A DNA stretch of 48,200 nt from Bacteroidota bacterium. GTDB lineage: Bacteria > Bacteroidota > Bacteroidia > Bacteroidales > Lentimicrobiaceae. Below, in pieces: positions 23,423-46,756 of the stretch (positions within the stretch are counted from its first letter, which is position 1; each line of letters opens with the position of its first letter). The notes under the pieces were generated by a model. That model had not been told where the DNA came from. It saw only the letters and a list, made by a program, of their open reading frames with translations, and ran no database searches. The stretch lies in the NCBI GenBank assembly GCA_009773455.1, contig WSXU01000027.1, forward strand, positions 1 through 48,200, in the 5' to 3' direction. The translations under genes were made by a program, and so were the position numbers.

Positions 23423-24769
23423 TTATACCACTTTCCCTTCCTTTATAAATTCCCTTTTAATGGCAGCTTCAAGATTTTCTTCTGAAAGCGTTTTCCTGCC
23501 AGAAGAAAGCATTTCAAGTGCACAGTAGTGAGCAACATTTACAATGCCTGCCCCACTGAGTTCGTAGCGTGAAGCTATTTTCTGCCAGTCGGGGTTTCCT
23601 CCGTTCACCATATTTTCAGGGAAGGACTTCATCCAGATGGCAGCCCTCTCGGTTACTCCGGGCATGGGGAAGTGGATAACCGCCTGAAAACGCCTGACAA
23701 ACGCATCGTCAATGTTTCCGCGCTGATTGGTGGCAAGAATCACCAGACCGTTGAACGATTCTATTCGTTGCAGCAGGTAGGCTACTTCCTGGTTGGCATA
23801 TTTGTCGTGTGCATCGCGGATATCCGTTCTTTTCCCGAAAAGGGCATCGGCTTCATCAAAGAAGAGAATCCAGTTCTTGTCACCGGCCTTGTCGAAAAGC
23901 CGCGACAGATTTTTCTCCGTTTCCCCGATGTATTTCGAGATCACCCTCGACAAATCAATACGGAATACATCCCTGCCCGTCTGTTTCCCAAGCAGCGTTG
24001 CAGTCAGGGTTTTCCCTGTGCCTGGTGGACCATAAAACAAGACCCTGTATCCTGGTTTCACCCTCTTTTTCATAGCGGGATCTTTCATCAGGGTCTCATT
24101 GTGAAGTATCCATCCCTCTATTTCTCCGATCTGCTTCCTGGTAGATGGATGTAAAACAAGGTCGTTCCATTCCATTTCCGTTTCTATATTTTCGGCCGGG
24201 AAACCGGAACTGAAGCGGGGTTTACTGATGGTACCCAAAGTGATTGATTCAACAATTTCGGGGTCAAGGGTAAGCTTTCCGCTCATGGCCGGCTCACCTT
24301 CATGCACCTGGTCAAGCCATAGAATATGCTTCTTTGAAAACCAGTGGTCAGAACCAAGAATATGCTGAACCTGGAGCCTTTTTATCAGATCATTTCCCGC
24401 GAGTAGAAAAAGAACTGTTTCTCCGGTCGGAAGGATTCCCCTGTGGTTACTTGCTTTCACGCCTCCGAATTCAGGAAAGTCACCGCCTTCGGGGAATGAT
24501 TCCGCTACGATCCTGTTGAAGAAATCAGGTTGAAGATGCGGGGCCAGAGCCAGGAGCAATGTCATATACTCCCTGAAATCAGGCTTGTACTTTTCGATAA
24601 AGGCCGCAAAAGGAGATCCATCGTTTTTCAGCCTGAACGACACCTTTTCAGCAGCCTGACCCGCTGACCGCGGATGCGACAACCGCCGCTTCACCATATC
24701 CTGAAGCTGCAATAAAGCCTTGTATAATATTTCTCCGCTCATTCCTGTCCGGTTTGTTTCAGTACCCAT
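23423..24769 (-). CDS. eCIS AAA+ ATPase (Afp15-like)
   Basis: A 448-residue ATPase with an N-terminal region (1-235) and a single AAA+ module. Walker A is 'GPPGTGKT' (247-254), Walker B 'ILFFDEAD' (301-308), sensor-1 Asn348 in 'ILATNQRGNID', and arginine fingers Arg359/Arg360. In eCIS loci such ATPases (Afp15/PVC15) are needed for proper particle assembly, probably in tail termination, cargo loading or remodelling. It is the last gene of the operon in this window. It is separated from the DUF4157 gene by 112 bp that contain a heptamer array. The ATP site is complete. Confidence 0.92.
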   Translation of the reverse strand: MGTETNRTGMSGEILYKALLQLQDMVKRRLSHPRSAGQAAEKVSFRLKNDGSPFAAFIEKYKPDFREYMTLLLALAPHLQPDFFNRIVAESFPEGGDFPEFGGVKASNHRGILPTGETVLFLLAGNDLIKRLQVQHILGSDHWFSKKHILWLDQVHEGEPAMSGKLTLDPEIVESITLGTISKPRFSSGFPAENIETEMEWNDLVLHPSTRKQIGEIEGWILHNETLMKDPAMKKRVKPGYRVLFYGPPGTGKTLTATLLGKQTGRDVFRIDLSRVISKYIGETEKNLSRLFDKAGDKNWILFFDEADALFGKRTDIRDAHDKYANQEVAYLLQRIESFNGLVILATNQRGNIDDAFVRRFQAVIHFPMPGVTERAAIWMKSFPENMVNGGNPDWQKIASRYELSGAGIVNVAHYCALEMLSSGRKTLSEENLEAAIKREFIKEGKVV

Positions 24770-24830: not shown

Positions 24831-24879
24831 GTTAACTGTTAATTGTTAGTTGTTAACTGTTAGTTGTTAGTTGTTAACT
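24831..24879. repeat. Heptanucleotide tandem repeat (GTTARYT)
   Basis: Seven exact-period 7-bp units are GTTAACT, GTTAATT, GTTAGTT, GTTAACT, GTTAGTT, GTTAGTT and GTTAACT. It ends two bases from the stop codon of the DUF4157 gene (stop at 24882-24884) and lies in the leader of the ATPase gene. Confidence 0.9.
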
Positions 24880-24881
24880 GA

Positions 24882-27281
24882 TCAGGGTGTTCTTTCTGCC
24901 GATTCTCCGCCTTTTGAAACCGTGGAAGTGCCATCTGTCCCTTCAATCGTAAAAGATTGCGTCACATCGGTGAATTTCTTGCCATCTCCTGATTCTGTCC
25001 TGACTTTGAAACGGTTTGGTATTATCCAGTCGTATCCACCACGGCTCCAGGGGGCCGGATAGTTCCACATGGCTGCGGTATCGGTTGCTGAATCCACATT
25101 GTCGTGGTTGATGGGATAGAAGGTATCACCCGAATCATGATGATAATCACCACCATGGGTGGCGAAGTAACCCCTGACGCCGGTAGCCGGACCTGACACT
25201 TCCCTGGCATCGGCATTGCCGAATGAAACGGTCTTGGGATGATAATGGAATTTCAGTTTCATGCCGACACCCTGACGGCCCCGCCTGAACGTCATCTCTT
25301 CCTTCTTCCGGGCGGTAATGGCATTGGGTTCAAGCACATTCATCACCACATCGCGGGTGTATTTTCCTGATTTCAGGCTGACCTTCAGGGTGGCTGCCCG
25401 GTCGGGTGCTGTCCACACAAATCGGGTTCCGGTAGCCTGGGCAAGCGGGATTCCGCCGGTTGCTTTCCATTCACCTGTCTTGCTTCCGGTAAATGTTACG
25501 CGTTCACCCACACCCACTTTTTTTCTCGATTTGCCTGAACCATCAGGTGCGGCAAAGGTGGTTTCAATGTCGATGTCCGGGGCGTTGATCCACCAGTCCC
25601 AGAATTCAGCGATGGTTAATGCAAACCGTTTCACCAGGCCAATCAGCCAGTTCCATGCTGAAACGATACCCCGGCCGACGGCAACGGCGATAGCGAGCAG
25701 CCAATGATAAGCAGAAACAATCATTTTCCCAGCCCTGGCTGCCATACTCATCAGCCAGGTGAAAGCAGCGGTTACACCCCTGCCAATGCGCAACGAAGCA
25801 GCATAGAGCCAGTTCCATGCCCTGATAATGGTCATCATGATCAGCGATGCAGCCATCTGTATCCATTGCCAGGCCATAGCTATAACCATTCCGATCATGG
25901 CAGCCACCGATTGGATCCAGATCCATGTGGCCAGGATGAACATGCTTATTCTTGCTGCCACAAGCTGAATCCAGATCCAGGCGGTGGTGATGGTCATCCT
26001 AAGGAAGCCGGCCGCCATTTGTATCCATTGCCATGCGCTGGTAATCATCATGGTAAGCCTTGCTGCCACCGCTTCAATCCAGGTCCATGCTGTAGTGAGC
26101 ACCATGCCAACCATGGAAGCCAGCCGTCGTATCCATTGCCAGGCGAGCGATCCGCTGAGCCCAAGCCTGGCTGCGGCAGATTCTATCCAGGCCCAGGCTG
26201 AAACGATGCCCGTGCCGATTTCCCCGGCCACCGACCTGATCCAGCCCCAGGCTGCCGATAATCCCATTCCGATCCTGTTTGCTATGTTTTGTATCCAGCC
26301 CCAGGCAGTATCAAGGCCTGTGCCCAGCGTTGAGGCCAGCTCCTGGATCCAGTTCCTGGAGGACTGAAGACCCTGGCCAATCCTTGACGCCAGGTTGCTT
26401 ACCCATGACCAGGCCGCTGCAATGCCTGCCCTGATCCGGGATGCAATCCCCTGAATCCAGCTTGTTGCTGCTGCTATACCGGCTCCGATGGCAGCCCCGA
26501 TCCGACGGAAAAAGCCGGTTGTCGCATCCGGAGCCAGGCCAGATCCTTCTGCATTGGTATCCATGGTATTTCGCTGAATCAGCTGGCTGCCGCTTTCACC
26601 GGTTTGCTGTAATATCCTGCTTTCTGATACCGGAACGGCTGGCGCTACTCCCTGATTGCTTAACCCGGGCGAAGAACCCTGCTGAACCACATGGGTCAGT
26701 TCATGGGCGAGTAGTTGTTTGCCCTGCTTTGTGTCGGGATTGTATTGCCCCGAACCGAAAAAGATGTGGTTCTTATGGGTAAATGCCCTGGCATTCAGTT
26801 GGCGGCTCAGTTGCGATGACTGATCATCGTTGTGAATCCTGACATTGCTGAAATCATTGCCGAACCTGGGTTCCATAAAATCCCTGACCGGGCGTGGAAG
26901 AGGCATCCCCCCTCCGGTTTTACTCCTGATGGCCGTTTGTGTACTTTCGTCCGGATTCTGGTTTCCGGCTTCTTTTTCAGGTAGCGAATTGTCCTCCCTG
27001 CGTTGTACCTTCTCTTCAACCTGACTTTCAATCTTTTTTCCTTCGTCCACCGACCGGGCACCCCCAGACATCCGCATCACCCGCTCTGCCACACTGTCGG
27101 CTTCACGCTCAAATTTGTCGCCGGGCTTGTTTACAGCAAGTTTGGTCTGAATAATGGTTTGTGTTCCCTGCCTGACAGGTGCAAAAAAATCACCACCACC
27201 GGCCTTTGCAAAAAAAGACGAGCCCGACTTCTGTGATACTGAAGTTGTTGAAGTGGTTGATTTTTCAGCAGTCGATTTCAT
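24882..27281 (-). CDS. eCIS-associated DUF4157 protein with 17 Trp-anchored helical repeats
   Basis: A 799-residue protein. Residues 1-125 are polar and low-complexity, with 'KPGDKFEREADSVAERVM' (52-69) typical of eCIS DUF4157 proteins. The DUF4157 core (about 126-201) has 'PLPRPVRDFMEPRFG' and ends in 'LLAHELTHVVQQ', with a complete zinc-type HExxH at 193-197. Residues 258-563 are 17 consecutive 18-residue units, each ending in Trp (275, 293, 311, then every 18 to 563), mostly of the form I-x-x-h-A-x-R-h-G-x-G-h-x-x-A-W-x-W; the middle units are very hydrophobic. An Ig-like beta domain follows (about 570-652), and then an unrecognised C-terminal domain (656-799) with 'PINHDNVD' and 'WSRGGYDWIIPNRFKV'. 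DUF4157 proteins are frequent eCIS cargo or cargo adaptors. The gene lies between the tape-measure and ATPase genes. Confidence 0.85.
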   Translation of the reverse strand: MKSTAEKSTTSTTSVSQKSGSSFFAKAGGGDFFAPVRQGTQTIIQTKLAVNKPGDKFEREADSVAERVMRMSGGARSVDEGKKIESQVEEKVQRREDNSLPEKEAGNQNPDESTQTAIRSKTGGGMPLPRPVRDFMEPRFGNDFSNVRIHNDDQSSQLSRQLNARAFTHKNHIFFGSGQYNPDTKQGKQLLAHELTHVVQQGSSPGLSNQGVAPAVPVSESRILQQTGESGSQLIQRNTMDTNAEGSGLAPDATTGFFRRIGAAIGAGIAAATSWIQGIASRIRAGIAAAWSWVSNLASRIGQGLQSSRNWIQELASTLGTGLDTAWGWIQNIANRIGMGLSAAWGWIRSVAGEIGTGIVSAWAWIESAAARLGLSGSLAWQWIRRLASMVGMVLTTAWTWIEAVAARLTMMITSAWQWIQMAAGFLRMTITTAWIWIQLVAARISMFILATWIWIQSVAAMIGMVIAMAWQWIQMAASLIMMTIIRAWNWLYAASLRIGRGVTAAFTWLMSMAARAGKMIVSAYHWLLAIAVAVGRGIVSAWNWLIGLVKRFALTIAEFWDWWINAPDIDIETTFAAPDGSGKSRKKVGVGERVTFTGSKTGEWKATGGIPLAQATGTRFVWTAPDRAATLKVSLKSGKYTRDVVMNVLEPNAITARKKEEMTFRRGRQGVGMKLKFHYHPKTVSFGNADAREVSGPATGVRGYFATHGGDYHHDSGDTFYPINHDNVDSATDTAAMWNYPAPWSRGGYDWIIPNRFKVRTESGDGKKFTDVTQSFTIEGTDGTSTVSKGGESAERTP
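25593..26510 (-). repeat. Coding tandem repeat, 17 units of 54 bp
   Basis: This part of the DUF4157 gene encodes residues 258-563 as 17 uninterrupted 18-codon units with Trp at the last position of each unit. The unit boundaries never slip, but DNA identity between units is only moderate, so the array is old and kept by selection at the protein level. Confidence 0.85.
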
Positions 27282-27454: not shown

Positions 27455-28831
27455 TTAGTAATTCCACTCCACCCTCAGCATCTCCCTCATCCATGGCAGT
27501 TTTATCATTGCGATCCCCCATGGCAGCTGATCAAGCAGGATATCCCAGGATCGGGATTCGACCTGCAATACCCAGCCATCTTCTTCACTCCGGCTCAGTT
27601 TTCCGGGTCTGTAAAGGAAAGATCCCCTGAGTCCGTCCGGGCTGGTGTCTCTGAGTGCTTCCCAGTGCCCGATCACGGCTTTGAGCAGGGTAATACCTTC
27701 GGCCGATTCCTGTTCATCAACCGGATTATCTGTCATAAGTGGTTTATTTACCGGTATTCCGCAAAGAATTTTAGGTAAGACCAGTTCGTATTCAGGTGTT
27801 TTATGGTTTCCTGAGACCAGATAGCCAAGCAGTTGCAGAGCCTTCTCAGGATTTAGCAGTTCTGCATCCTGCGAAACATGCAGGCTTTCGAAGAAACCCG
27901 GCAGGAAAGGATGCAACAGGATCAGTCCGGCATTACGGATATAAACAGGTTCGGTATCAGGTAAGATTTCTGGAATAGGTTTCACGAAATTCAGTATGTC
28001 CTGACCTGACTTTCTGTTTTCCTGTTTGGCTCCGGAATTCAGCAGCTTCTTCAGGGTGGGTGTTACACCCTGTATTTCAGGAAAAGTCCGGAGCAGATGT
28101 GACCTGAATCCATCCCCGGAAGGAGATTCTGCATAGGAAAAATAGGAAAATGCAGCCGCAAGGATACTCTTTGTAAATGCATCCCTTGCTGCAACAGAGA
28201 ATTGAAGCATTTCTCCCGAAGAGAGAATTTTTCCCGATAACTCCGACACCGATGGGGCGATCAGGTTGAGCAGTTCTGTCAGAAATGTCTCAGGAAACTG
28301 GTTGCCAAGTCTCACAAGGGCGCTCTTATCCGACAATGTCTGCTTGATTTTATTGATAAACTGATGGTTGTTGCTTCCTTTCATGATATCCCTGACAGCT
28401 TCAATCACCACTTCATTCAGTGGCTTTTTATCAGTTAGGCTGAAGTGCCAGGGCAGTTTTCCGGTTTCAAGGAAGTAAAGGAAAATGCCGGAAGTGTCTT
28501 CATCACTGTTTCGAATGACTACATGACCATCCGGATTCTGTTCTTTCGTCTGAATGCTGCTCATCTCCTTTAAAACCCTGGCCATTTCCCTGATTATCAC
28601 CCCGGTCAGCTCCTTATCCATATGGTCAATAGGGATGGAACCCGCATCAATGTCGAGCCGGTCAATTTTCAAAAGTTTACCGGCCGGAACTGATTGATCA
28701 AATACCTTTTCAAGGGCCGGGAACAATTTTTCGTACAACAGATCAGGAATCAGCCGCTGCATAAGCTGACCATCCGGCTCTGTACCGGAAAGTTCCAGAT
28801 AAAGGTGCTGCTGCCTGATATGGTGTGTCAT
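27455..28831 (-). CDS. Contractile injection system tape-measure-family protein (Afp14-like)
   Basis: A 458-residue protein that matches the family named CIS tape measure protein. Its N-terminus is 'RQQHLYLELSGTEPDG', with 'IDRLDIDAGSIP' near 57-68, a central helical part beginning 'FLYFLETGKLPWHF', the hallmark 'NAGLILLHPFLPGFFESL' (around 302-319), and the C-terminal 'RGSFLYRPGKL', 'GWVLQVESRSWDILLDQLPW' and 'IKLPWMREMLRVEW'. Afp14-type proteins are proposed to set tube length inside the particle. Its ATG overlaps the stop of the upstream 1617-residue gene by ATGA, so translation is coupled. The identification is strong; the ruler role in this short form is not proven. Confidence 0.88.
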   Translation of the reverse strand: MTHHIRQQHLYLELSGTEPDGQLMQRLIPDLLYEKLFPALEKVFDQSVPAGKLLKIDRLDIDAGSIPIDHMDKELTGVIIREMARVLKEMSSIQTKEQNPDGHVVIRNSDEDTSGIFLYFLETGKLPWHFSLTDKKPLNEVVIEAVRDIMKGSNNHQFINKIKQTLSDKSALVRLGNQFPETFLTELLNLIAPSVSELSGKILSSGEMLQFSVAARDAFTKSILAAAFSYFSYAESPSGDGFRSHLLRTFPEIQGVTPTLKKLLNSGAKQENRKSGQDILNFVKPIPEILPDTEPVYIRNAGLILLHPFLPGFFESLHVSQDAELLNPEKALQLLGYLVSGNHKTPEYELVLPKILCGIPVNKPLMTDNPVDEQESAEGITLLKAVIGHWEALRDTSPDGLRGSFLYRPGKLSRSEEDGWVLQVESRSWDILLDQLPWGIAMIKLPWMREMLRVEWNY

Positions 28832-33721: not shown

Positions 33722-36700
33722 CTATGCCTTCGGTGGTTTCTTCTTTTTTGATGACTTGCGTGATGCCTTTACCGGAACCGGCTTTTTGGCCCTGACGCGT
33801 GGTTCAGGAATCCTTGAAATCAAAGTATTTTTTACTTCCATGATGCTCCTTTTCATTGGATAATTACCAAGTGAAGTACTTCCCAGACGAACCGGATTCT
33901 GATCACTGCCATCAACGCAGTCGTGGAGGGTTGCACCCGGATAAACATTCCGTATTCCTGCCAGCTGGTTTACGAATACCTGCAGTGTGTATGAAGCTTT
34001 CCTGTAATAATTGTACCGTTCTGTCAGAAAATTGCGGATGGCTTCAGCAGTCCCGGGTTTAAACTGTCCCGTCTGACAAAGGTCAACCTGTGCTCCGGCG
34101 AATTCAGGCAAATCCGTTAAGGCTATTCCTGAAACGATCAGGCCGTTCATCCAGCTATGGAATGCTGCACCAAAGACAGAAAGGACACTTCCTGCACAAT
34201 GGCACAAATCTGTATCATTGCCTGTGGCTCCCTGCAGAAACCCTGCTTTCAGCATGGCTTCAACCCTTTCAGTGAGCATTTCTTCCGTCCGGTCAATGGC
34301 GGCGTTTTCCCTAAGCCAGTTGCACCAGGCCTCCTCGAGCCGTTCAAACTGCCAGCCGTTGATTGCAGTTTCAGTAAAATGGCCGACCAGCATAGCCCTG
34401 ATTTTATCAGTCAGTGAAGAATTGCCGGTCGAGGTGCAGGCCGTTTCCGGGACAATTGTGCTGAACAGGTTCGCCAGTTGTGCTTTCAGGGCATCGGGAT
34501 GTATGTATTCAAGTGTTTTGTCTTCATACCATTGGATGAAAGCTGCTGAGAACTGAAGATAGACAGCATTGGCACAGGCACAGGCTTCCGATTCTGATGG
34601 CCGGGTGCCATCTTCCCTAAACCCATCTTTCATGATCAGCCCGGTCAATTCTGAAATCACCTCATCGCACAGGTTTTGAATGAAGCCATCGTTTCCGGCC
34701 CAGCATATTTTACCAAGCAAATGGGAGGGTATCTCCTGACGGATGGTGCGGTCGGCAAACCGCCGTGCATCGGTATTGACACTGAAAGGACCGGTCCAGC
34801 CGGGCATTACAACCGTCAGCCTGAACGAGTATGGATCTTCATCCCCGCATGTTACACATGATCCGTCACTGCAGGCAGGATACAGCGCATCACCGGGGAA
34901 TCTGGGCCTCAGCAGCAGGTGTTCTACCACGATGGCCCGCTCATTGCTGCTCCAGTTGATAAATTCATCTTTCAATTCCACAGCAAGACCCGTGGAAACA
35001 ATTGTATCCGGAAAACTTCCCAACAGGTTTCCGTCTTTGTCGTTCAGCCTGAGTGTAAAACCATCACCCGATGCCTGGACTAACCAGGCATCGGGCCGAA
35101 TCATCTGTTTCACGATGGTTTTCCCGGCAATAACTTCAGCAGTTTTTTCATCAGGGGCATCTGCTGCGACCTCACCATTGAGCTGACTTCTTCCAAAAGA
35201 ATCCTTCAGTGTAAATCCAAACCTGCAGATGGTTCCGCTAAGGCTGATGAGGGTGAATTCAAATCTCAGATCGGGATATACGAGGAGCAGGCTGAAGCGT
35301 TTTTTCAGCCCGGAAATATTGGTTGGTGAACAGGGGTTGTTCATGTAATTAAACGCTTTTCCACGGCTGTGGCTTATTTCAGGATATGCCTTCAGAAAAG
35401 CGGTCTTGTCTTCTATCAGGTTTTCCATCGCTACAGGCTTGCCCTGAAGGTTGGTCAGCAAAAGGGCGTACTCACTGAATTGCTCACCAAAACGGGCCAT
35501 CAGATGGTCGAGGAAGCGGTTCCTGCGTTCATGAAACTCCGTGAGGGTCTCCGTCATTCCCTCCAATCCGGTGGTTGTAAGCCCGCTCACGATTTCATCA
35601 TAGCCACGGATCAGTTCTTCACTGAATTGCCTGACAAAATAGGTCTGCCTGGTAGCCGGATCAAGAGAAAACAGATCTCCGGTATGTGCTACCTGTGCAA
35701 AAGCATTGCCGAGCAGCTGTTCATAAACCAGCAGGTAAGCCTTCAGCTGTTTTGCCATGGCCCGGCGTGCTTCGCCTGCATGCGACGGCAATCCTTCGGT
35801 ACCAACGCCAAAAATCATCGGCAAGCTGTTTTGTACCGGGAAATACTCCTCAATATCAGTGAATGTTCCCGGAGACGGATACAAATCCCCTGCTGAATTT
35901 TTATACTTCGGACGTTCAGCCTCACCGCGCAACTGAGTGAGCGTATCCCTGGCTTCATCCATCCGGGGTGTAAAGGGCAGGCCGTTTTTGAAGAAAAGGA
36001 AACGGCTCAGGTTAAGATACAGCCTTGGCTGATGGTTTTCACTGATAAAAAGTAACCACTGCGCACTTGTTTTCGATCCGTCGAATACCGGATTTCCATT
36101 GACCCAGGCGGGATCAGCCGCACCTTTCACAATATTCCCTTCCGTATCATACTTCGACAGCAGCAGGTTGTTGATGGCCACCACCCCTTCGATTTCCATC
36201 AGCAGGTTGATGATATCGGAAGTCTTGATCATTGCCTTCAGCTGCGCGTTTTCAAGTTCATCCGTTGCTATGAATCCGTTGCCGAGCGCCGGACCGTTGA
36301 AAATATCTTCGCCCGCTCTGCCTTCATTCATCAGTTCCTGCAGTGAATAAAAAGGCACCGGCGGATTGAGGTATCGCTCAATCTCGAACCACACCCTGGC
36401 CTGAACAAGTTCAATATCGGCATCCGGAGTAACTTCTATGTCAGCGCATACAGCAACTTCCTCTATATCCACCACTTTTACCCGGCAATAATCTTCGTCC
36501 AGGTTGCGGTGGGCATGAAGCAGACCTTTCGACAGCGTGGTATATGCTTCGGCTTTAAGCATTTTGCTGCGGTATTGCTGTAATATGCCTGTTCCGGTTT
36601 CCTTTCTTGTCATGATTTCTTCCAGCCGGCTCACTGTACTTCCATTTTTGGCAGTAGTGTCACCAAGCAACCGGAGAGTGATGTCTTCAATGATTATTTT

Positions 36701-37567
36701 TTCTCCACCCGGAAGAAACTCCAGTTCCAGGTCAGCATAAAAGAGGTTCCGCCATTGCCGGTGCAGGTAGTTGTTTTTACCTTCCTCGTTCAGCAGGGGA
36801 TCCGAAATGACATTGTAGTCTTTTGTTGCTCCGAACTGCAGGAGATTGAGGTTGAATGAAGCTCCGTTTGCACCGTTGAAAGCATCGTTGTTATGAAGGA
36901 ATAATTCCCATTGGTTTTTGTTTAAAAACGACCAGTCAGGGAAACGCACTTCCATAATCACAGGATGTGGCTTTCCGTCTCCGTCATAGACCTGATAGGT
37001 AAATTCAACCTTGCGGTTATTCAGGTCGCCTGTTTCAGGGTCCTCTTCAAGTTCAAGAAGTACCTCGTACAGGCCACGTGGTGAAACCTTGACCGGCTGA
37101 ATGTCAGGGTTAGCCGGAGGGGCATACGCCAGCATCAACCTGTCTTCGTCGCACCAGGCGTAATAATGAACGTCACAGTCACATTCCCTGCAGATAAGCC
37201 ATGCATTTCTTACACCTTCCGCATCAATCAGTAACTTTCTGAAATCATTGGTAGTCCATGGATTGACAGTCAGAATTTCCCTGGCGGTGAAAAATGCCTG
37301 ATCGGGGTATGGATTTTTCTTATCTGCCGGCGGCTCTGCCTTTGTCAGGATGTTTCTGATGTCTTGACCGGTGCGGTAAGCAAGATCGGTAATGGCATAA
37401 CACAGCGCTTCCAGTATGGTAATTCCAGGGTCATGCGTATTGTAATCCGTCCATTGCCGGCTACCCATCTGCTCGATGTGGCCGATGCCTTCCCTGCGGA
37501 GCCGGTAATAGTCTGCTGCCGGCTTCAGAACTGGCTTTTTCGGTATACTGAGGGGTTTCTGGCTCAT
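33722..37567 (-). CDS. Large baseplate J-like protein (Afp12-like)
   Basis: A 1281-residue protein starting at the ATG at 37567, whose ATGA overlaps the stop of the preceding gene (a start five codons earlier is also open). It carries the eCIS baseplate signature 'DYNTHDPGITILEALCYAIT' (41-60). Two segments with clustered cysteines ('CSDGSCVTCGDED', near residue 900, and 'SEACACANAVY', near 1000) are notable. A basic C-terminus rich in Lys and Pro closes the protein. It should form part of the baseplate wedges around the spike, like Afp12/T4 gp6-gp7-type proteins. The identification rests on the N-terminal signature and the gene order. Confidence 0.82.
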   Translation of the reverse strand: MSQKPLSIPKKPVLKPAADYYRLRREGIGHIEQMGSRQWTDYNTHDPGITILEALCYAITDLAYRTGQDIRNILTKAEPPADKKNPYPDQAFFTAREILTVNPWTTNDFRKLLIDAEGVRNAWLICRECDCDVHYYAWCDEDRLMLAYAPPANPDIQPVKVSPRGLYEVLLELEEDPETGDLNNRKVEFTYQVYDGDGKPHPVIMEVRFPDWSFLNKNQWELFLHNNDAFNGANGASFNLNLLQFGATKDYNVISDPLLNEEGKNNYLHRQWRNLFYADLELEFLPGGEKIIIEDITLRLLGDTTAKNGSTVSRLEEIMTRKETGTGILQQYRSKMLKAEAYTTLSKGLLHAHRNLDEDYCRVKVVDIEEVAVCADIEVTPDADIELVQARVWFEIERYLNPPVPFYSLQELMNEGRAGEDIFNGPALGNGFIATDELENAQLKAMIKTSDIINLLMEIEGVVAINNLLLSKYDTEGNIVKGAADPAWVNGNPVFDGSKTSAQWLLFISENHQPRLYLNLSRFLFFKNGLPFTPRMDEARDTLTQLRGEAERPKYKNSAGDLYPSPGTFTDIEEYFPVQNSLPMIFGVGTEGLPSHAGEARRAMAKQLKAYLLVYEQLLGNAFAQVAHTGDLFSLDPATRQTYFVRQFSEELIRGYDEIVSGLTTTGLEGMTETLTEFHERRNRFLDHLMARFGEQFSEYALLLTNLQGKPVAMENLIEDKTAFLKAYPEISHSRGKAFNYMNNPCSPTNISGLKKRFSLLLVYPDLRFEFTLISLSGTICRFGFTLKDSFGRSQLNGEVAADAPDEKTAEVIAGKTIVKQMIRPDAWLVQASGDGFTLRLNDKDGNLLGSFPDTIVSTGLAVELKDEFINWSSNERAIVVEHLLLRPRFPGDALYPACSDGSCVTCGDEDPYSFRLTVVMPGWTGPFSVNTDARRFADRTIRQEIPSHLLGKICWAGNDGFIQNLCDEVISELTGLIMKDGFREDGTRPSESEACACANAVYLQFSAAFIQWYEDKTLEYIHPDALKAQLANLFSTIVPETACTSTGNSSLTDKIRAMLVGHFTETAINGWQFERLEEAWCNWLRENAAIDRTEEMLTERVEAMLKAGFLQGATGNDTDLCHCAGSVLSVFGAAFHSWMNGLIVSGIALTDLPEFAGAQVDLCQTGQFKPGTAEAIRNFLTERYNYYRKASYTLQVFVNQLAGIRNVYPGATLHDCVDGSDQNPVRLGSTSLGNYPMKRSIMEVKNTLISRIPEPRVRAKKPVPVKASRKSSKKKKPPKA

Positions 37568-40500
37568 GATTCGCAGTTGCATTGTTCAGCAGCGATCTCT
37601 TTCGCAGCCGGGTGAATAACTGTAATTCCGTGTCTGTTGGCAGGTGCTGAAACAAGTATGGAAACAGCACTGGAACCTTCAATTTCGTTCATATCGCTTG
37701 TGCCCTGGATGCCACCGATGGTATGGAACATTCCGAAATCGGTCACATAATCAACATAAGGCTGTTCCTCAACAAAATCAACCAGGACCGATTTATAAAT
37801 CTTGCCGCCGAACGAAGGGCTTTCGCCTCCCGGAAATGCCCAGGGAGAAAGGAAACGCGTGATGGCCTCCTTCAGGATATCGGTGTAGAAACCCTCATCA
37901 TACCCTTCATATAATTTTAGTCTGAAATTGACATTCACCTCCTCAAACCGGGGATTCCTTACATGCAGTCTGACAAAGCAGGATACACGTGTTTTCAGAA
38001 ATGCTGTGATCTCCTGAAGTGTCCCCAGGCTGGTATAAGGACGTAACGGATCACGCTGATTGTGGAATTGCTTGTTGGGAATCGTAACGATGGTGACATT
38101 CCCGGGAGCCAGTTCACGGTATATGCCGTCCCCGTTTTCGGTAGGTTCATACTGCGTGTGGTTAAGGCATTTTACCCTGTAAATTTCCGGGAAGGCTTCC
38201 AGCACCAGGTGCTCATAATCCCACAAAGTGATGGCCCGGTCCTTATGCCGCAACCGTTCACTTACTCTTGTATAGAATGATTCAGAATTTTCAGCAGCCT
38301 TGCCTCCGAAGGAATCAAACGGTTGCGAAATCTTTTTGATGTCTGAATCCGGTATTTCCTGTTTGGCGATGGTACCAGCCGCGACAACAGCTGCAGCAAA
38401 TCCCGGATCGTTTTCCCTGTCATTAAACGTTGCCAGCATGGCCTGGGCCGAAACCATCAGCAACCGGCAAACGGCATCGGTAACCCCTGAAACGGCAATC
38501 TTTATCCAAAACTGCCCGCCCGGCAGCAGGGTATTGGATTCTCCGGCGTCTGAGGGGATTGCCAGCGTCATGATTCCCGGTTTCAGCAGGCCTTCCGTCT
38601 GATCCGTTATTTCGTTATCCCTGAAGGCAACCCACTCGTTGTTGCTCAGGAAACTCAGGTGAAGATGCGGCGATGGTTTCAGGCTCAGTGGATTGGCTGT
38701 GCCATCAGCAACCTGGAACAACAGCGAAAGGTTCTGCGGAGGTTTCAGACCTGTGACACCGATGTAGAATTCCGCTTCACTTCGCTGCACCAGATTGTTG
38801 CGTTCAAAGTTGAACTGCGGCAACAGAAATGTCTTCAGGTCTGAACTCAGGAATGCATGCTCTTCGGCATGACCGAAGGGATACAGATGATAGTAGCGCG
38901 CGCTGCGGCCTGCAAATGATTCTTCAGAGGCGGTATTCAGCACAAGGGTCTGTACGGCGGTATAATCGAGCGAAAGAGAATTCATAAAGGGGCCCGTGGG
39001 AGGCGCACCCGGATCAGCAGCCCCGTCATCTTTGCGTACATATTTCAGTAAATCTGTCTGGTAAGCTTTCTGCCCGAAATCTGCATCCAGCCTAAGTTTT
39101 ACAAATCCCTGCCTCGATTCATTGGAATAGATCTCATCATCTCCTGCAAAGGGTGCATCCTTCACCACCAGGTGAAGATTCTGGGAAAGAACAATGGATG
39201 TAGATGTCACCGGAACAGCCGGATTTGCCGATGGCTTCCAAATGCCTGAATTCAGGAAATCAAAATTGATGTTCGGGATGTTGCTGCCATAAGGATCCGG
39301 ATTTTCGAGCCAGGAGGCTCTGAAGGTAAGCGATGTCAGGTTTTTCTGAAATACTTCAGCCGACCCGATGATCATGGAACTGCCTGTAACTGGCATAGCC
39401 CCGAAAGGCTGGAATGGTTTGGATGAATCAATGGCCCCGAAATCGTTTGAGACGGCCAGTGTTTTTAACCCGGTTACATTGACGGTAAGCTGAAGCTGAT
39501 GTACCTCAAGTTCATGGAAGTAGTTATAAATGAACTCATTATCGGGTCTGTGCCTGAGCTTTACCATCATCATGGGTAGTGTGGTATCGAAGTTGTATCC
39601 GTGTGTTTTTGACAGGTAAGGAACCACAGCAGCATCTGCACCACTGAGTTTTGCTGTAAGGCGCATTTGAGTGCCCGAAACCAGACCGAATCCCGTCGTT
39701 CCGATCTCTGTCCAGCCTTTTTCACCGGTTACCAGGCAAACAATATCATCTTTGTAATCAGCAGTATACGCGTTTGAATTTGCACCCAGGGTGAATAATA
39801 GGGTAATGAAACGTTCTCCGCCTGACAACAGCAGATAATGTGAAGCAATGGCAAAGCCTGTTTCAGCTTCAGGCATTTCAATGCCGGTGAGGATACCATT
39901 GGTATATACTTTATTGCTGAACGGATGCCATGACTTATCATCCTTCTCAATCTTTTTCCCTGATCCGTCAGCTGAATCAGAAAAAGGGGAGGCGTAATAT
40001 CTTCCATTGTTCAGCGTGGCTGCCGGGCCGGATCCTACAGGCTCATTTCCGTGCCGGTAAACCGATTTCAGTGCGGTCACTCTGGCCTGATTGGCCACAA
40101 GATCCGAGTTATTGGTAAAAAGTACCTCTTTGCCCAGGGCATCTTTACCTGCCGGGAATCCGTCACCACTTTTGAAATGATGAGAAACAGCCTGTTTTGC
40201 CAGTTCCGCGATCAGGTGAACTTTGGGTGGCGCGGCCGGCCTTTCATTCAGACGCAGAATATCCCGGTAATAAAAGTCAAGATGTCTTCCGGTGAGGGTA
40301 TTCATCTCTTCCCTGGCATGTTCGAAAAGACGGAGAAATCCAAGGAACAGGGCGTAATGCGGGTCGTGCCTGTCCCAGGAGGTAAAGCTCGTTTCCAGGG
40401 CCGACCGGGCTTCGGCAATGACCCTGGCATAAACTTTCAGGAACTGGTCCAGAACAGTGCTAAAGAAATTATGCGTCGAAATATGGTTGGTCAGCTCAAA

Positions 40501-41238
40501 AACAGTTCCCGCAGGATTGCCGTAGACCGTTGAATCAGGCATTACAGCTGCTGTATAGCTGTTCCAGTTTGCTGATCCGTCGGTTATCCAATCGGTTGAA
40601 AACCCAGACTCAACGTTGACTGCAAATCCTGAAGCCTCAATGCCCAGAATTTTCAATTCCCCTGGAGGGGTAGCCTGGCTTATTACGCCAAAGGCAATTC
40701 CGGATTGATACCATGAAATCATCTTTTGCAGGGCCGGAGCAAGCTGACTTTTTATCTGATTCAGAAGACTTGCCCTGAGTGTAAGCCATGCCGGCGGATC
40801 TTCATCTTCAGCAGGAAGACCTTCCTTCAGTACATCAAGTTGTTTTGCCAGTGTGCTTGTACAGCTGAAAAGATAGCTCAGATGACCGATCAGGGCAGTG
40901 TCGCGGGTTTCATTATCCAGATTGTTTAAAAAATCAAGACTGGATTTGATGGTGGATTTATATTCATCGATATTCTGAATGGCAGCCACCGCAAGCCTTA
41001 CTGAAATGTCGTAGCTGAAAAAGGCCGTCCAGTTTGTGGCCGAAGTATTGTCTTCATCAAAGAATTTAAGATATGCCGCAAATGCCCTTGCGAAAAGCAT
41101 CCCATGCGCAGGTGTCCGCTCATTCACCGGAGCATGGGATGGCTTCAGTGCCCGGGAAAGTCGTTCTTCCTGGTTGGTACCATCCCTCCTCAGCTTCAGG
41201 GGGTCGGTGTTCTGGTGACAGTTTTCCGGCAGTGGCAT
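37564..41238 (-). CDS. Large baseplate J-like protein (Afp11-like)
   Basis: A 1224-residue wedge protein. Its N-terminal ~950 residues are long and mostly unassigned ('LFARAFAAYLKFFDEDNTS' near the start). The C-terminal part has the conserved baseplate-J features 'RVSERLRHKDRAITLWDYEH' and 'EAFPEIYRVKCLNH' (around 990-1025), 'NVTIVTIPNK', and 'LSPWAFPGGESPSFGGKIYK', a typical gpJ ending. With the Afp12-like protein it should build the baseplate ring. The stop overlaps the start of the next gene, and the gp25-like gene ends 11 bp upstream of its start. Confidence 0.85.
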   Translation of the reverse strand: MPLPENCHQNTDPLKLRRDGTNQEERLSRALKPSHAPVNERTPAHGMLFARAFAAYLKFFDEDNTSATNWTAFFSYDISVRLAVAAIQNIDEYKSTIKSSLDFLNNLDNETRDTALIGHLSYLFSCTSTLAKQLDVLKEGLPAEDEDPPAWLTLRASLLNQIKSQLAPALQKMISWYQSGIAFGVISQATPPGELKILGIEASGFAVNVESGFSTDWITDGSANWNSYTAAVMPDSTVYGNPAGTVFELTNHISTHNFFSTVLDQFLKVYARVIAEARSALETSFTSWDRHDPHYALFLGFLRLFEHAREEMNTLTGRHLDFYYRDILRLNERPAAPPKVHLIAELAKQAVSHHFKSGDGFPAGKDALGKEVLFTNNSDLVANQARVTALKSVYRHGNEPVGSGPAATLNNGRYYASPFSDSADGSGKKIEKDDKSWHPFSNKVYTNGILTGIEMPEAETGFAIASHYLLLSGGERFITLLFTLGANSNAYTADYKDDIVCLVTGEKGWTEIGTTGFGLVSGTQMRLTAKLSGADAAVVPYLSKTHGYNFDTTLPMMMVKLRHRPDNEFIYNYFHELEVHQLQLTVNVTGLKTLAVSNDFGAIDSSKPFQPFGAMPVTGSSMIIGSAEVFQKNLTSLTFRASWLENPDPYGSNIPNINFDFLNSGIWKPSANPAVPVTSTSIVLSQNLHLVVKDAPFAGDDEIYSNESRQGFVKLRLDADFGQKAYQTDLLKYVRKDDGAADPGAPPTGPFMNSLSLDYTAVQTLVLNTASEESFAGRSARYYHLYPFGHAEEHAFLSSDLKTFLLPQFNFERNNLVQRSEAEFYIGVTGLKPPQNLSLLFQVADGTANPLSLKPSPHLHLSFLSNNEWVAFRDNEITDQTEGLLKPGIMTLAIPSDAGESNTLLPGGQFWIKIAVSGVTDAVCRLLMVSAQAMLATFNDRENDPGFAAAVVAAGTIAKQEIPDSDIKKISQPFDSFGGKAAENSESFYTRVSERLRHKDRAITLWDYEHLVLEAFPEIYRVKCLNHTQYEPTENGDGIYRELAPGNVTIVTIPNKQFHNQRDPLRPYTSLGTLQEITAFLKTRVSCFVRLHVRNPRFEEVNVNFRLKLYEGYDEGFYTDILKEAITRFLSPWAFPGGESPSFGGKIYKSVLVDFVEEQPYVDYVTDFGMFHTIGGIQGTSDMNEIEGSSAVSILVSAPANRHGITVIHPAAKEIAAEQCNCES

Positions 41239-41249
41239 GGTTCTTTGTT

Positions 41250-41690
41250 TCAGGCGATCAGGTTAACACTTGTACTAAGGTTGATGTCGGTACCTTCCAG
41301 CTTATAGAAAGGATAGACAAAATTGAACCGGGTGTTGGTGGTCCGGATCCGGTAAATCACTTCAATCAGAACCACCCCTTCAGAATCCCTGCTGTCATCG
41401 ATCCTTACTTTCTCAAGTTCAATCCTGGGTTCATGATACAGAATAGCCGATTCTATCTTATCTTCCATCAGGGTTTTAATGCGGGTATCCAGACTTTCGA
41501 ATACCAGTTCGTCGAGGTTACAGCCATATTGGGGCAACATCACCCGTTCGCCCCTCATCGTACCCAGCAACACTTCGAGGCTTGATGCTACGTCAGCTTC
41601 ATATTCCAGCATCTCCACACTACGGAGGCTGCGGTTGAACCTCGGTGGAAACGACCACCCCCGGCCAAGAAATGTCAGATTCTGTTCCAT
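41250..41690 (-). CDS. GPW/gp25-family baseplate protein (Afp9-like)
   Basis: A 146-residue protein of the gp25 (T6SS TssE-like) family. It has 'LGRGWSFPPRFN' at the N-terminus, 'VASSLEVLLGTMRGERVMLPQYGC' split between the conserved I/L-x-x-LL-x-T-x-x-GER and P-x-Y/F-G-x-x-L motifs, and 'IKTLMEDKIESAILYHEPRI' in the C-terminal half. gp25 starts sheath assembly from the baseplate. It is the first gene after the long repeat-filled gap, so it may need its own promoter; no good Bacteroidetes-type box was seen on this strand. Confidence 0.93.
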   Translation of the reverse strand: MEQNLTFLGRGWSFPPRFNRSLRSVEMLEYEADVASSLEVLLGTMRGERVMLPQYGCNLDELVFESLDTRIKTLMEDKIESAILYHEPRIELEKVRIDDSRDSEGVVLIEVIYRIRTTNTRFNFVYPFYKLEGTDINLSTSVNLIA

Positions 41691-42997: not shown

Positions 42998-44764
42998 TCA
43001 GTTTATCTGCACTACTCCTCCCTGTATCACGGCTGTGGCACTCCCTTTCAATGTAGCATTGGCCCCCGAAAGTTCCACACTTCCTGTTCCTTCCGCCTTA
43101 AATGAGGCACTGGCCTTCATTCCCATATTGATGCCTTCGAGCTTTATATCTTTTACAGCTTTCAGTATCAGGTCTTTCGAACTTTCGATGGTGATACCGC
43201 TGCCGTTCATGGTGATTTTATTGCCATTCTGGTCTTCAAGTTCAATGCCTTTCGCATCTTCCGACAAGGTAATTTTGTTGCCTCCGGGTGTCTCCAGCAT
43301 GATTATTTTCTTCTCATCATCAAAGGAGAACCGCATTTTTTCACGGCTTGTATAGCCCTTCTGATGATTGGTGTCTTTTGCCTTTTCAGGTGCCGGCTTT
43401 GCACTGCTGTGGCACATACCCAGCACCACAGGGTTACGGGGATCATCGTTCAGAAATCCTACAATAACTTCATCGTCAACTTCAGGGCGAAAGTATGTGC
43501 CCCGCTGATTACCGGCGTCCAGGGTGGAAATTCTCGCCCAGATGCCCTCGTCGGAAGTGCTGATCACAGGCAACCTGATTTTTATCCTGTCCTCACCGGC
43601 AGGGTCGTTTTCAAGCTGGGTGACCTTGCCGATCTGCAACCCGCCGATGCCCGGCACAAGACCGGAAGCAGGCAATGGCCGAAGGTTAATGGTTTCAGCA
43701 AAAAGATCCGGACTGAGGCCCAATTGTACATCGGTTTCCCAGTTTCCGTCAGCCACGGTATGCCGTACGCCTGATATGTACATTTTGCCTTCAAACCTTT
43801 CGCCGATTCCTGACAGTTCGATGATCTTACCCGGCATCGCACCGGCAAAACCCTGGAATTTTGCCCTGCCCCTTGTTCTGGCCAAACGTTCCTTCATCAA
43901 TCGTCCGTCAGCCCACATCTGCAGTTCCGGCTGGCTGAGCACTCCCCCATGTATTAATTTGCGCACCCCGCCGCCGAAAGCTGCCGATAATTCATTTGCA
44001 GGAAGGTTGCCGTTTCCGGTTGTTTCAGGCTCATTGGCTTCCGCCTCAACAATAAGCTGATCAGCCGGATTCCAGCTTTCAGCACTGATGCTTTCACTCT
44101 GCAACCTGGCATCAATAACCGCATCCAGTTCAAGAAGTGTATTTCCAAAAGTTACATTAACGATGGCTTCACTTCCCGTAGCAGGTTTACCGACCTGAAC
44201 CTTCCCATCTTCAACCATCACCACCTGACCATTGGCTTCGGCCCTGCATAAAAGGAAATCCCAGTCACTGGAATCAAACTGAACAACCTCTTTCAGATCA
44301 GTGGTGGTAGCTTCAACCTCTTTCTGCAATCCGTTGCTGCCGATAAGCTGCTCCATGATGTCAGAGTCTTTCTGCTCAGCGAAATACTTGTTTTTTCTAC
44401 CCAGGGTCATTATGATTGCCTTGTCGCGACATTCAACGATCAGCATACTGCTGTTGCGCCGAACCCTGACGCTGTGGCTGATGATGACGCCTTTGAATAC
44501 AGTGTCATTCTGTGAACGGTAACCCAGCTGGATTTCAATTTCTTTCCCCGGAAGGAAGGTTTCGGTATTGCTGATCGCAAAGGTTGAGCTTGATGCTTCT
44601 CCATCACGCAGGAACAGGGTAGCTGAAGGGATACGGTTCAGCTCCCTGCTCACGGTCACCGAAAGGAGATGGTAAGCGCCCGGAATCTGTATGCCGCCAG
44701 TCAGAATAACAGCGGTGCATACATCAGGGGTAGCAGGGGTTGGTATGTTCGATTCGCTGGCCAC
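42998..44764 (-). CDS. VgrG-like central spike protein (Afp8-like)
   Basis: A 588-residue spike. Residues 1-350 form the gp27-like domains, with 'YHLLSVTVSRELNRIPSATL' (31-50) and 'QFDSSDWDFLLCRAEANG' (162-179). Residues 376-460 are the gp5-like OB fold: 'GLQIGKVTQLENDPAGEDRI', 'RGTYFRPEVDDEVIVGFLND' and 'PVVLGMCHS'. From about 485 to the end there is a triple beta-helix with short repeats such as 'GGNKITLS' and 'NGNKITMNGSGITIESS'. It forms the trimeric needle that the PAAR tip sharpens. The start lies 5 bp from the stop of the Afp7-like gene. No C-terminal effector extension. Confidence 0.94.
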   Translation of the reverse strand: MASESNIPTPATPDVCTAVILTGGIQIPGAYHLLSVTVSRELNRIPSATLFLRDGEASSSTFAISNTETFLPGKEIEIQLGYRSQNDTVFKGVIISHSVRVRRNSSMLIVECRDKAIIMTLGRKNKYFAEQKDSDIMEQLIGSNGLQKEVEATTTDLKEVVQFDSSDWDFLLCRAEANGQVVMVEDGKVQVGKPATGSEAIVNVTFGNTLLELDAVIDARLQSESISAESWNPADQLIVEAEANEPETTGNGNLPANELSAAFGGGVRKLIHGGVLSQPELQMWADGRLMKERLARTRGRAKFQGFAGAMPGKIIELSGIGERFEGKMYISGVRHTVADGNWETDVQLGLSPDLFAETINLRPLPASGLVPGIGGLQIGKVTQLENDPAGEDRIKIRLPVISTSDEGIWARISTLDAGNQRGTYFRPEVDDEVIVGFLNDDPRNPVVLGMCHSSAKPAPEKAKDTNHQKGYTSREKMRFSFDDEKKIIMLETPGGNKITLSEDAKGIELEDQNGNKITMNGSGITIESSKDLILKAVKDIKLEGINMGMKASASFKAEGTGSVELSGANATLKGSATAVIQGGVVQIN

Positions 44765-44769
44765 GTCGT

Positions 44770-45471
44770 TTACCTGGTTTTTTCAATGGGTGGAAAATAG
44801 ATGTCTGTTCCGGGTTTCAATGACCTGAAGCCGGAGAGTCCGTTTGCTGCAGCCACCTGCAGATAATACTTCGGATCACCATATATCCGGTAACACATCA
44901 ATGGAAGGGTATCACCAGCTTTTACCTTTCGAATATGGGTCAGGTCGGGTGAACTGTTGTTTTCTCTGGCGGCCCTGATCTGCTCTTCTATGCTGCTTTT
45001 AAACCTGACTGTGGCTACAGCCCTGATTGGTGTTCCGTCGGGTCTGAAAAGTTTGTAATTGATCGAAAGCTCGGTTACCCTGCCTTTGAATATGGAGTTT
45101 TCGCCCCATACCAGTTTGAAGTGACGTGGCTCATGGGAGTCTCCCTTGTAGTCAATCACAACTTTTTTGAAACGTTTCAGGTCATCGGCTATACTGGCCC
45201 TCGGCTTTCCGTCAATAATTCCGGTATTGTCGAAAAGAAATTCAAAAGTGATCTCTTCCGGTTCGGTGTACTCGTATTTGAGCTGCTGACCACTGGTGCC
45301 CTGACCCTGTGCACTGTCGGTAAATTTTAGTTTGTAACTGAGCGCATAGCCCTCAGGGTTGATGAGTGCTTCAAAAACATCATCAGCCTCCTTCAGACCG
45401 CCATTCTCGGCTTTTTCCGAATCGGAAAATGCCAGGATAAGCATCTTTTCGAGTTTTCCACTTTCAGCCAT
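44770..45471 (-). CDS. LysM-containing CIS tube-associated protein (Afp7-like)
   Basis: A 233-residue protein. Residues about 1-165 are the CIS tube protein domain ('MLILAFSD', 'VFEALINPEGYALSYKLKF', 'FKLVWGENSIFKGRVTELSI'), and residues about 178-228 are a LysM domain ('RKVKAGDTLPLMCYRIYGDP'). In Afp/PVC particles this protein joins the inner tube to the spike and baseplate, and the LysM serves as a structural module rather than for peptidoglycan binding. Its start codon shares one base with the stop of the DUF5908 gene (TGATG), so they are translationally coupled. Confidence 0.93.
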   Translation of the reverse strand: MAESGKLEKMLILAFSDSEKAENGGLKEADDVFEALINPEGYALSYKLKFTDSAQGQGTSGQQLKYEYTEPEEITFEFLFDNTGIIDGKPRASIADDLKRFKKVVIDYKGDSHEPRHFKLVWGENSIFKGRVTELSINYKLFRPDGTPIRAVATVRFKSSIEEQIRAARENNSSPDLTHIRKVKAGDTLPLMCYRIYGDPKYYLQVAAANGLSGFRSLKPGTDIYFPPIEKTR

Positions 45472-45659
45472 CAGCGTTCTTTTTTATTTTCCAGAATTTT
45501 CATGACCTGTTCTACACATTCAGCAATGAGTTCCTGCCTCTGCCTGCCTGTAAGCCGCTCCGGCTGTCCCGGCGACCCTCCCGGTGCCGGGGGTGTCTGC
45601 CCTGAAGCAGGCGGTGTTACATTAACACGGATGTGAAGCTCCTTTATCTCTATCGGCAT
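45471..45659 (-). CDS. DUF5908 family small eCIS protein
   Basis: A 62-residue protein of the DUF5908 type, found in eCIS loci between the tube genes and the Afp7-like gene. It starts 'MPIEIKELHIRVNV', has a Pro/Gly-rich linker (15-33), and ends in an amphipathic helix 'RQELIAECVEQVMKILENK'. The role is unknown; it may be an assembly factor or a small baseplate component. Its stop overlaps the next start by one base. Confidence 0.88.
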   Translation of the reverse strand: MPIEIKELHIRVNVTPPASGQTPPAPGGSPGQPERLTGRQRQELIAECVEQVMKILENKKER

Positions 45660-45746
45660 AATCCCGGGTATGTCTCTTCTTCCCCGTATTCAACGGAAAA
45701 CAGGAAAAGAATAATGGTTTGTTACTGTGTTCAGTTCTGTTCCGGT

Positions 45747-46193
45747 CTATTGGACCGTAAAATAACGATAGGTCAGTTCCAGCGTTTCTATCACAACAGC
45801 ATTCTCGGTTGAAATCAGGTCACTGATCATCCATTTTTTTGGTATCGCATGTGTCACCTTCCATGTCTTCAGAGGTTCACCTTTCTCATTCAGCAGGATA
45901 ACACTGATGTCGGAAGGTTCGAACTGACGATCGCGGAAAGCCCGGTTAAACCAGTTGATCAATTCCGAATCGGTGAGCATTCCCCGTTTCAGGATCAGGT
46001 CGCTGTACCTGGTTCTCACAGGCAGCTTGTGTTCGAAACGGTTCTCACCACCTTCCCTGAAACTTTCATAGTCGTACTCTACCGATAAGCCCGATACCGA
46101 CTGAAACCTGACATCACTCAGGTTACCGCTGATACCAAACTCAACTTTGTAGTAAAACCCCCAGGGCGGGTAATAATCTGCTGGTCTGGCCAT
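45747..46193 (-). CDS. CIS inner tube protein 2 (T4 gp19 family, Afp5-like)
   Basis: A 148-residue tail tube protein (Phage_T4_gp19 family). It has 'WGFYYKVEFG', 'FQSVSGLSVEYDYESFREGG', the conserved 'DLILKRGMLTDSELINWF' and a C-terminal 'VIETLELTYRYF' strand. It starts 3 bp after the stop of the other tube gene. In Afp/PVC, the second, less abundant tube protein forms the layer next to the spike; the order here suggests that role. The two tube proteins share the family but are clearly different. Confidence 0.9.
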   Translation of the reverse strand: MARPADYYPPWGFYYKVEFGISGNLSDVRFQSVSGLSVEYDYESFREGGENRFEHKLPVRTRYSDLILKRGMLTDSELINWFNRAFRDRQFEPSDISVILLNEKGEPLKTWKVTHAIPKKWMISDLISTENAVVIETLELTYRYFTVQ

Positions 46194-46196
46194 GGT

Positions 46197-46631: not shown

Positions 46632-46756
46632 AGATCTGTTTTTTTGTAATTTGGTTTCTAAGAAGTGTACCTCTTTTCTGAATGTTTGTTTTTGCAGGCA
46701 TCAGGTAGTTCCTGTCGTTCTGAATTCAGGTTTTATTCATCAAACCTGAAATTTGA

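What the first reader, a model, noticed from the sequence alone, without database searches (positions are those of the whole stretch)
24882..27281. DUF4157 eCIS protein with a 17-unit, 18-residue Trp-anchored helical array
Residues 258-563 are 17 uninterrupted units of exactly 18 residues with Trp at the end of every unit. Eighteen residues make five full turns of an alpha helix, so all 17 Trp would fall on one face of a continuous helix about 46 nm long (306 residues x 0.15 nm). The middle units become strongly hydrophobic (Met, Ile, Thr). Phage tape-measure proteins are known to carry aromatic residues at fixed repeat spacing, and DUF4157 proteins are frequent eCIS cargo. This protein may therefore be a cargo threaded along the tube, a second ruler or lumen filler, or a membrane-inserting toxin. 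The HELTH motif and an unassigned C-terminal domain add a possible enzymatic part. I know of no described eCIS protein with this design.
Basis: partly seen in the sequence, partly recalled or inferred. Interest (0 to 1): 0.82.

Follow-up and report, generated by a model that had tools for sequence, protein, structure and literature searches.

The report
Phage-ruler-like cargo of bacterial injection machine
A bacterium's phage-tail-derived injection machine comes with a protein whose middle is a strikingly regular tryptophan-marked helix, like the ruler proteins inside phage tails; it is probably a cargo stored in the tube, a new variant of something already known.

Summary
Residues 258-563 of the ORF at 24882-27281(-) are 17 units of exactly 18 residues, Trp at position 18 in 17 of 17. 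Three orthologues, each in a genome with an eCIS tape measure gene, keep the 18-residue register without an indel, with 17, 21 and 25 units. Of 393 genomes of the order, 3 carry the array, all among the 25 with CIS_TMP. Hydrophobicity peaks at 100 degrees in 4 of 4 arrays, as for one amphipathic helix. The array resembles phage tape measure proteins (TMPs): a clear family match for one array of four and a weak one for the window's, viral TMPs with Trp every 18 residues, and four 18-residue repeats in the TP901-1 TMP (PMC5099701). A DUF4157 protein with an 11-residue array holds the same slot in L089. HELTH is part of DUF4157. Best reading: tube cargo with a TMP-like helical middle and a C-terminal payload. 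Unit number does not clearly track TMP length (r 0.73, p 0.27, n 4). TMP-like DUF4157 effectors (Tme) are published, so this is a new variant.

The parts
24882..27281 (-). ORF, 799 aa: DUF4157 + 17 x 18-residue array + Ig-like stretch and C-terminal domain
26673..26903 (-). eCIS_core (DUF4157, PF13699) domain, residues 127-203, including the HELTH motif
   Evidence: E 2.5e-33
25593..26510 (-). array of 17 units of 18 residues, residues 258-563
25809..26132 (-). most hydrophobic stretch of the array, units 8-13, residues 384-491
24885..25592 (-). C-terminal part, residues 564-799: Ig-like stretch (reading inferred) and a conserved domain with no named family; relative on the Opitutaceae TAV5 plasmid
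27455..28831 (-). CIS_TMP (PF19268), the locus's own tape measure protein, 458 aa
   Evidence: E 5.4e-109
23423..24769 (-). AAA ATPase directly downstream; candidate cargo loader
   Evidence: role inferred from Pvc15 (PMC11495950, abstract)
33722..41690 (-). gp25-like (41250-41690), Baseplate_J (37564-41238), 1286-aa ORF without a Pfam family (33722-37582)
42998..48094 (-). hub/spike, CIS_tube protein, two gp19-like tube proteins, sheath

Best explanation
A cargo protein of this eCIS. The N-terminal region with DUF4157 recruits it to the particle, with an eCIS AAA ATPase as loader (inferred from AlgoCIS and PVC). The 18-residue units form one long amphipathic alpha helix: 18 residues are five turns, so Ile/Leu/Val/Ala at positions 1, 4, 5, 8, 12 and 15 make one straight hydrophobic stripe edged by the two Trp columns at 16 and 18 (sequence and period shown; helix inferred). 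The helix lies along the tube lumen as a phage tape measure protein does (inferred). On contraction it is ejected with the C-terminal domain, and in the members with hydrophobic units these contact or cross the target membrane and help the C-terminal domain through (inferred, weakest step). Array length changes by whole units, which keeps the stripe in phase.
For: The whole protein finds only itself in the own genome at E <= 0.01. Four orthologues, 80 units, all of 18 residues; position 18 is W in 61, F in 17, other in 2 of 80, position 16 W in 66. Hydrophobicity peak at 100.0 degrees in 4 of 4 arrays, scanned 80-129.5 degrees. CIS_TMP lies directly upstream in the window, L054, G937 and, at the end of another contig that also holds the N-terminal piece, L055; AAA directly downstream in the window, L054 and L055. 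All 3 array genomes are among the 25 CIS_TMP-positive of 393 (hypergeometric 2.3e-4; two share a genus). TMP likeness: L054 array hits phrog_58 (8.2e-9) and phrog_5493 (3.3e-5), window array phrog_8927 (0.0012), both TMP families; 4 scrambled L054 arrays hit no TMP family. The 4 phage records (3 phages) matched by the L054 array are all TMP genes. Viral Trp-18 arrays L228 and L207 are TMPs. The same slot holds a DUF4157 protein with an 11-residue array in L089. Identity to L054/L055: DUF4157 0.75/0.65, array 0.40/0.36, C-terminal domain 0.64/0.59. AlgoCIS DUF4157 proteins fill the lumen (PMC8894135, passages).
Against: No experiment on this protein. In G937 the AAA gene (71% identical) is on another contig and unrelated genes follow the array gene. 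The window array has no tblastn match in 50,697 phage records at 1e-3; L055 and G937 arrays hit no PHROG at 0.1; a scrambled control hit an unrelated PHROG at 0.0033, so the window's 0.0012 is weak. TMP likeness may be convergent. AF2 models unusable (pLDDT 34.9, 33.3). Gly at 9 and 11 (39 and 38 of 80 units) and 12 prolines, 11 of them at positions 11-14, could break the helix. No strongly hydrophobic unit in L054, which argues against an obligatory membrane-spanning segment.
Confidence: 0.6

Rival explanations
1. Second ruler: the array, with or instead of CIS_TMP, sets tube length.
For: Array length differs by whole units (17, 17, 21, 25); the two shorter TMPs (458, about 487 aa) go with 17 units, the two longer (546, 523) with 21 and 25. 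In phage TP901-1, deletions in the repeat region shorten the tail in proportion (PMC5099701, passages).
Against: The locus has a separate CIS_TMP. r 0.73, p 0.27, n 4, opposite order within one genus. The same TP901-1 paper finds that a whole 11-residue repeat can be replaced by alanines without effect on infectivity and that the repeats alone do not set length. 22 of the 25 CIS_TMP-positive genomes show no array match.
Confidence: 0.1
2. Membrane-active effector: the hydrophobic Trp-edged array is itself the active part, permeabilising the target membrane; the C-terminal domain only helps folding or binding.
For: Hydrophobic units 8-13 with Trp belts; 7 D/E against 22 K/R in the window array; Gly at 9 and 11. 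A glycine zipper is needed to move T6SS effector Tde1 across target membranes (PMC10240207, passages; a GxxxG motif, not the G-x-G seen here).
Against: No unit of L054 and only 2 of 21 of L055 reach a sum of -5; the C-terminal domain is far better conserved than the array.
Confidence: 0.2
3. The array is not a rod but a folded solenoid or bundle, one short helix per 18-residue unit with a Gly-x-Gly turn, acting as spacer or scaffold.
For: Gly 9 and 11 in about half of 80 units; the 12 prolines lie at 11-14 and 17 only.
Against: Low-confidence AF2 model draws helices of 64-89 residues (249-337, 341-408, 416-479, 486-566); coherent 100-degree stripe; phage TMP parallels.
Confidence: 0.1

Closest known systems
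Tme, tape-measure-related effector of the Streptomyces davawensis CIS (PMC11126660)
   Same: DUF4157, TMP-like region with predicted transmembrane helices, C-terminal payload, CIS locus (passages)
   Different: Payload is an EndA-type nuclease; over 2200 residues; no regular 18-residue array in the passages seen. Sequences were not aligned here.
AlgoCIS Cgo1/Cgo2 (PMC8894135)
   Same: DUF4157 proteins of an eCIS, shown to fill the tube lumen (passages)
   Different: No repeat array in the passages seen; other C-terminal domains.
TP901-1 tape measure protein and other TMPs with aromatic repeats (PMC5099701, PMC3271669)
   Same: Trp/Phe-marked repeats of 11 and 18 residues and hydrophobic segments; TP901-1: 25 repeats of 11 and 4 of 18 (passages)
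   Different: Mostly 11-residue period; DUF4157 not mentioned in the passages seen; acts in tail length.
Sle1 of the Streptomyces lividans CIS (PMC13277306)
   Same: TMP-like coiled-coil cargo tied to a DUF4157 protein (passages)
   Different: DUF4157 is on a separate partner protein (Sle2).
DUF4157 proteins of L089, L032 and L039
   Same: DUF4157, helix-period array, C-terminal part; L089 in the same slot between CIS_TMP and AAA
   Different: 11-residue period; another C-terminal part with a second HExxH motif, read from the sequence; Pfam names only eCIS_core in L089.

Membership tests
DUF4157/eCIS_core cargo of eCIS | PF13699 domain above cut-off | tested here: met
   114.5 bits, cut-off 22
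DUF4157/eCIS_core cargo of eCIS | encoded in an eCIS locus | tested here: met
   CIS_TMP, baseplate, tube, sheath, AAA neighbours
DUF4157/eCIS_core cargo of eCIS | present in the tube lumen, lost on contraction | not testable with these tools
   needs purified particles
Phage/CIS tape measure protein | sequence membership in a TMP family | tested here: inconclusive
   no Pfam TMP match; full-length window protein no PHROG at 0.01; array alone 0.0012, L054 array 8.2e-9, other two none
Phage/CIS tape measure protein | length sets tail length | tested here: inconclusive
   four loci, r 0.73, p 0.27 against CIS_TMP length, a proxy only; the locus has its own CIS_TMP
Phage/CIS tape measure protein | aromatic residues at an 11- or 18-residue period (found in about 5% of TMPs, so typical, not required) | tested here: met
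   criterion from PMC3271669 and PMC5099701 (passages)
Tme-type effector | DUF4157 in the same protein as a TMP-like region | tested here: inconclusive
   DUF4157 met; TMP likeness by period met, by family match weak
Tme-type effector | C-terminal enzymatic toxin domain | tested here: inconclusive
   no family in Pfam, PHROGs, NCBIfam or PDB sequences

The most novel reading that the evidence does not exclude
eCIS cargoes of this kind are modular injected rods: a helix of variable whole-unit length, phase-locked at 18 or 11 residues and derived from or convergent on phage tape measures, fills the lumen and after firing inserts in the target membrane as a conduit for an unrelated C-terminal payload, so that array length and payload change independently of the particle's own ruler.
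Probability: 0.3. Interest if true: 0.72.

Novelty: new variant of a known kind. Interest (0 to 1): 0.55.

Why it matters
How eCIS cargo is packed in a narrow tube and crosses the target membrane is open. A cargo with a strict helix-phase array in natural lengths of 17, 21 and 25 units, beside a separate tape measure gene, lets ruler, filler and membrane roles be told apart. It would also extend the TMP-like effector idea, described in Streptomyces and other Actinobacteria, to Bacteroidales.

Tried and rejected
Ruler: tested on four loci, not supported. HELTH as an extra enzyme: rejected, it lies in DUF4157. Structure: two AF2 jobs, pLDDT 34.9 and 33.3, so no fold search was run. C-terminal function: no family or structure match, no match in phage records or, by pattern scan, in viral contigs; one plasmid record. 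PDB matches to small envelope protein M (E 0.53) and Pfam matches below cut-off (suprabasin; Baculo_PEP_C and FolB in orthologues) taken as composition. Single-sequence searches with the array (1 of 295 class genomes) and the C-terminal part (1 of 395 phylum genomes) found only the own genome. The full protein matched 57 of 296 phylum genomes, by the listed coordinates mostly through the DUF4157 part. One search was a looser first pass (41 ORFs), mostly simple repeats. L228 and L207 were chosen by their Trp spacing, so the profile match is partly built in.

Full report
Observation. The ORF at 24882-27281 on the minus strand encodes 799 aa. Residues 258-563 are 17 units of 18 residues without an insertion or deletion; Trp stands at position 18 in 17 of 17 and at position 16 in 13 of 17 units. 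Identity at lag 18 is 122 matches; the largest value at any lag from 2 to 59 in 2000 shuffles was 53. The DNA units differ widely (pairwise identity 0.30-0.69) and Tandem Repeats Finder lists no array there, so the period is kept at protein level.

Locus. The gene lies in an eCIS cluster on the minus strand: sheath, two tube proteins, a CIS_tube protein, hub/spike, gp25-like, Baseplate_J, two large ORFs, CIS_TMP (PF19268, E 5.4e-109), this gene and an AAA ATPase. The contig ends with the window at 48200. The eCIS_core/DUF4157 domain is at residues 127-203 (E 2.5e-33) and contains HELTH; PMC11297309 describes a HEXXH motif as part of DUF4157 (passages). A search of the own genome with the whole protein finds only this gene at E <= 0.01.

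Relatives. A pattern scan of 84,980 species genomes with an alignment of the C-terminal part and its plasmid relative confirmed 2 of 55 stretches: a Prolixibacteraceae MAG (L054) and an uncultured Bacteroidales MAG (L055). A profile search of 393 genomes of the order gave 3: the own one, G1000 (the L055 genome) and G937. Five genomes of the same genus lack the protein and CIS_TMP. The four orthologues have 17 (window), 17 (L054), 21 (L055) and 25 (G937) units, 80 in all, each of 18 residues. Position 18 is W in 61, F in 17 and other in 2 of 80; position 16 is W in 66. CIS_TMP is directly upstream in the window, L054 and G937; for L055 it lies on another contig of the same genome together with the N-terminal piece of the gene. 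AAA is directly downstream in the window, L054 and L055 but not in G937, where no AAA ORF follows and the 71% identical AAA gene is on another contig. A second search of 393 genomes of the order (the listed handles coincide with the first) found CIS_TMP in 25, and the 3 array genomes are among them (hypergeometric 2.3e-4; two of the three share a genus, so they are not independent).

Shape. On a helical wheel positions 1, 4, 5, 8, 12 and 15 form a hydrophobic face, with Trp 16 and Trp 18 towards its two edges and mostly polar residues opposite. The hydrophobic periodicity peaks at 100.0 degrees in 4 of 4 arrays over a scan of 80-129.5 degrees. An 18-residue period gives harmonics at 80, 100 and 120 degrees in any case; that 100 dominates is the informative point. 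The AF2 model has pLDDT 34.9; it draws long helices over the array but cannot be relied on. Gly at 9 (39 of 80) and 11 (38 of 80) and 12 prolines leave a kinked or folded form possible. Hydrophobic units (octanol sum -5 or lower) number 4 of 17, 0 of 17, 2 of 21 and 7 of 25 in window, L054, L055 and G937.

Likeness to tape measure proteins. The L054 array hits two TMP families of PHROGs (8.2e-9, 3.3e-5) and two of unknown function, the window array one TMP family (0.0012), the L055 and G937 arrays none at 0.1. Of four scrambled L054 controls none hits a TMP family, but one hits an unrelated family at 0.0033, so the window's own match is weak; the full-length window protein had none at 0.01. 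The L054 array matches 4 of 50,697 phage records (3 different phages), all in TMP genes, at E 4e-5 to 8e-5; the window array matches none at 1e-3. The TMPs of phiFL4A and PT1-1, and the viral TMP L064 found with the array profile, have Trp at 11 residues and its multiples. Profile comparison of the eCIS arrays with these two: probability 76.6, E 2.1e-5, partly built in because they were chosen by Trp spacing. PMC5099701 proposes 29 repeats in the TP901-1 TMP, 25 of 11 and 4 of 18 residues (passages); PMC3271669 reports 11 and 11-11-18 patterns (passages). Descent and convergence are not told apart.

A wider type. Of 65 motif-called DUF4157 ORFs in loci then in hand, a set I had partly chosen for long matches, 8 have at least 8 Trp in 120 residues: the window and its three orthologues (lag 18), and L032, L039, L033 and L049 (lag 11, strong in the first two). 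Of the 22 other CIS_TMP genomes of the order, whose neighbourhoods I fetched, L089 has CIS_TMP, a 652-aa DUF4157 protein with an 11-residue array, and AAA in that order; several other neighbourhoods are cut by contig ends, and most show no Trp array. So the slot can take helix-phase arrays of two periods with different C-terminal parts.

C-terminal part. Residues 564-652 and 653-799 are 0.65/0.61 and 0.64/0.59 identical to L054/L055, against 0.40/0.36 in the array and 0.75/0.65 in DUF4157. The only relative outside the group that my searches found is a protein of the Opitutaceae TAV5 plasmid (34%, E 2e-23), next to an ORF with a weak RHS match (E 0.0013). No family or structure names it. The Ig-like reading is mine, from strands in weak models. 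Payload or target binder is inference.

Ruler test. CIS_TMP lengths, from the first Met of each frame, are 458, about 487, 546 and 523 aa for 17, 17, 21 and 25 units; r 0.73, p 0.27. TMP length is only a proxy for tube length.

Verdict. Tube cargo with a TMP-like helical middle (0.6 overall; my estimates for the steps: cargo about 0.85, helix about 0.75, membrane step about 0.4). Published TMP-like CIS effectors (Tme, PMC11126660; Sle1, PMC13277306; passages) make it a variant of a known kind. Two literature searches (1 paper; 100: 31 papers, 12 listed, none read for this) showed no eCIS protein with such an array; the library holds open-licence papers only.

Noticed in passing
window 28828-33681 (-): 1617-aa ORF of the eCIS cluster with carboxypeptidase-regulatory-like domains and a sub-threshold SprB repeat match; possibly a fibre or adhesin part.
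   Followed up: no
window 1624-1676, 2193-2228, 24818-24880, 41741-41907, 42116-42426 and others: Many short, mostly intergenic tandem repeats with periods of 7, 14 or 21 bp and different unit sequences.
   Followed up: no
L053 (Opitutaceae TAV5 plasmid) 17534-20543: The C-terminal relative sits in a 420-aa frame beside an ORF with a weak RHS match; neither was annotated under that frame.
   Followed up: partly
CIS_TMP genes of the order: Open frames fall into a short group (about 426-624 aa) and a long group (about 1136-1565 aa) in which the two ends of the family are matched apart; a few frames are cut by contig ends.
   Followed up: no
L055 1-420 and the end of L056: About 33-residue tandem repeat ('PPEERSIQDILN...') before DUF4157, where the assembly breaks the gene.
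   Followed up: no
L065 (G937:C234) 1-4900: Small ORFs, not eCIS genes, follow the array gene, and the AAA gene is on another contig: this array gene has left, or never had, the AAA neighbour.
   Followed up: partly
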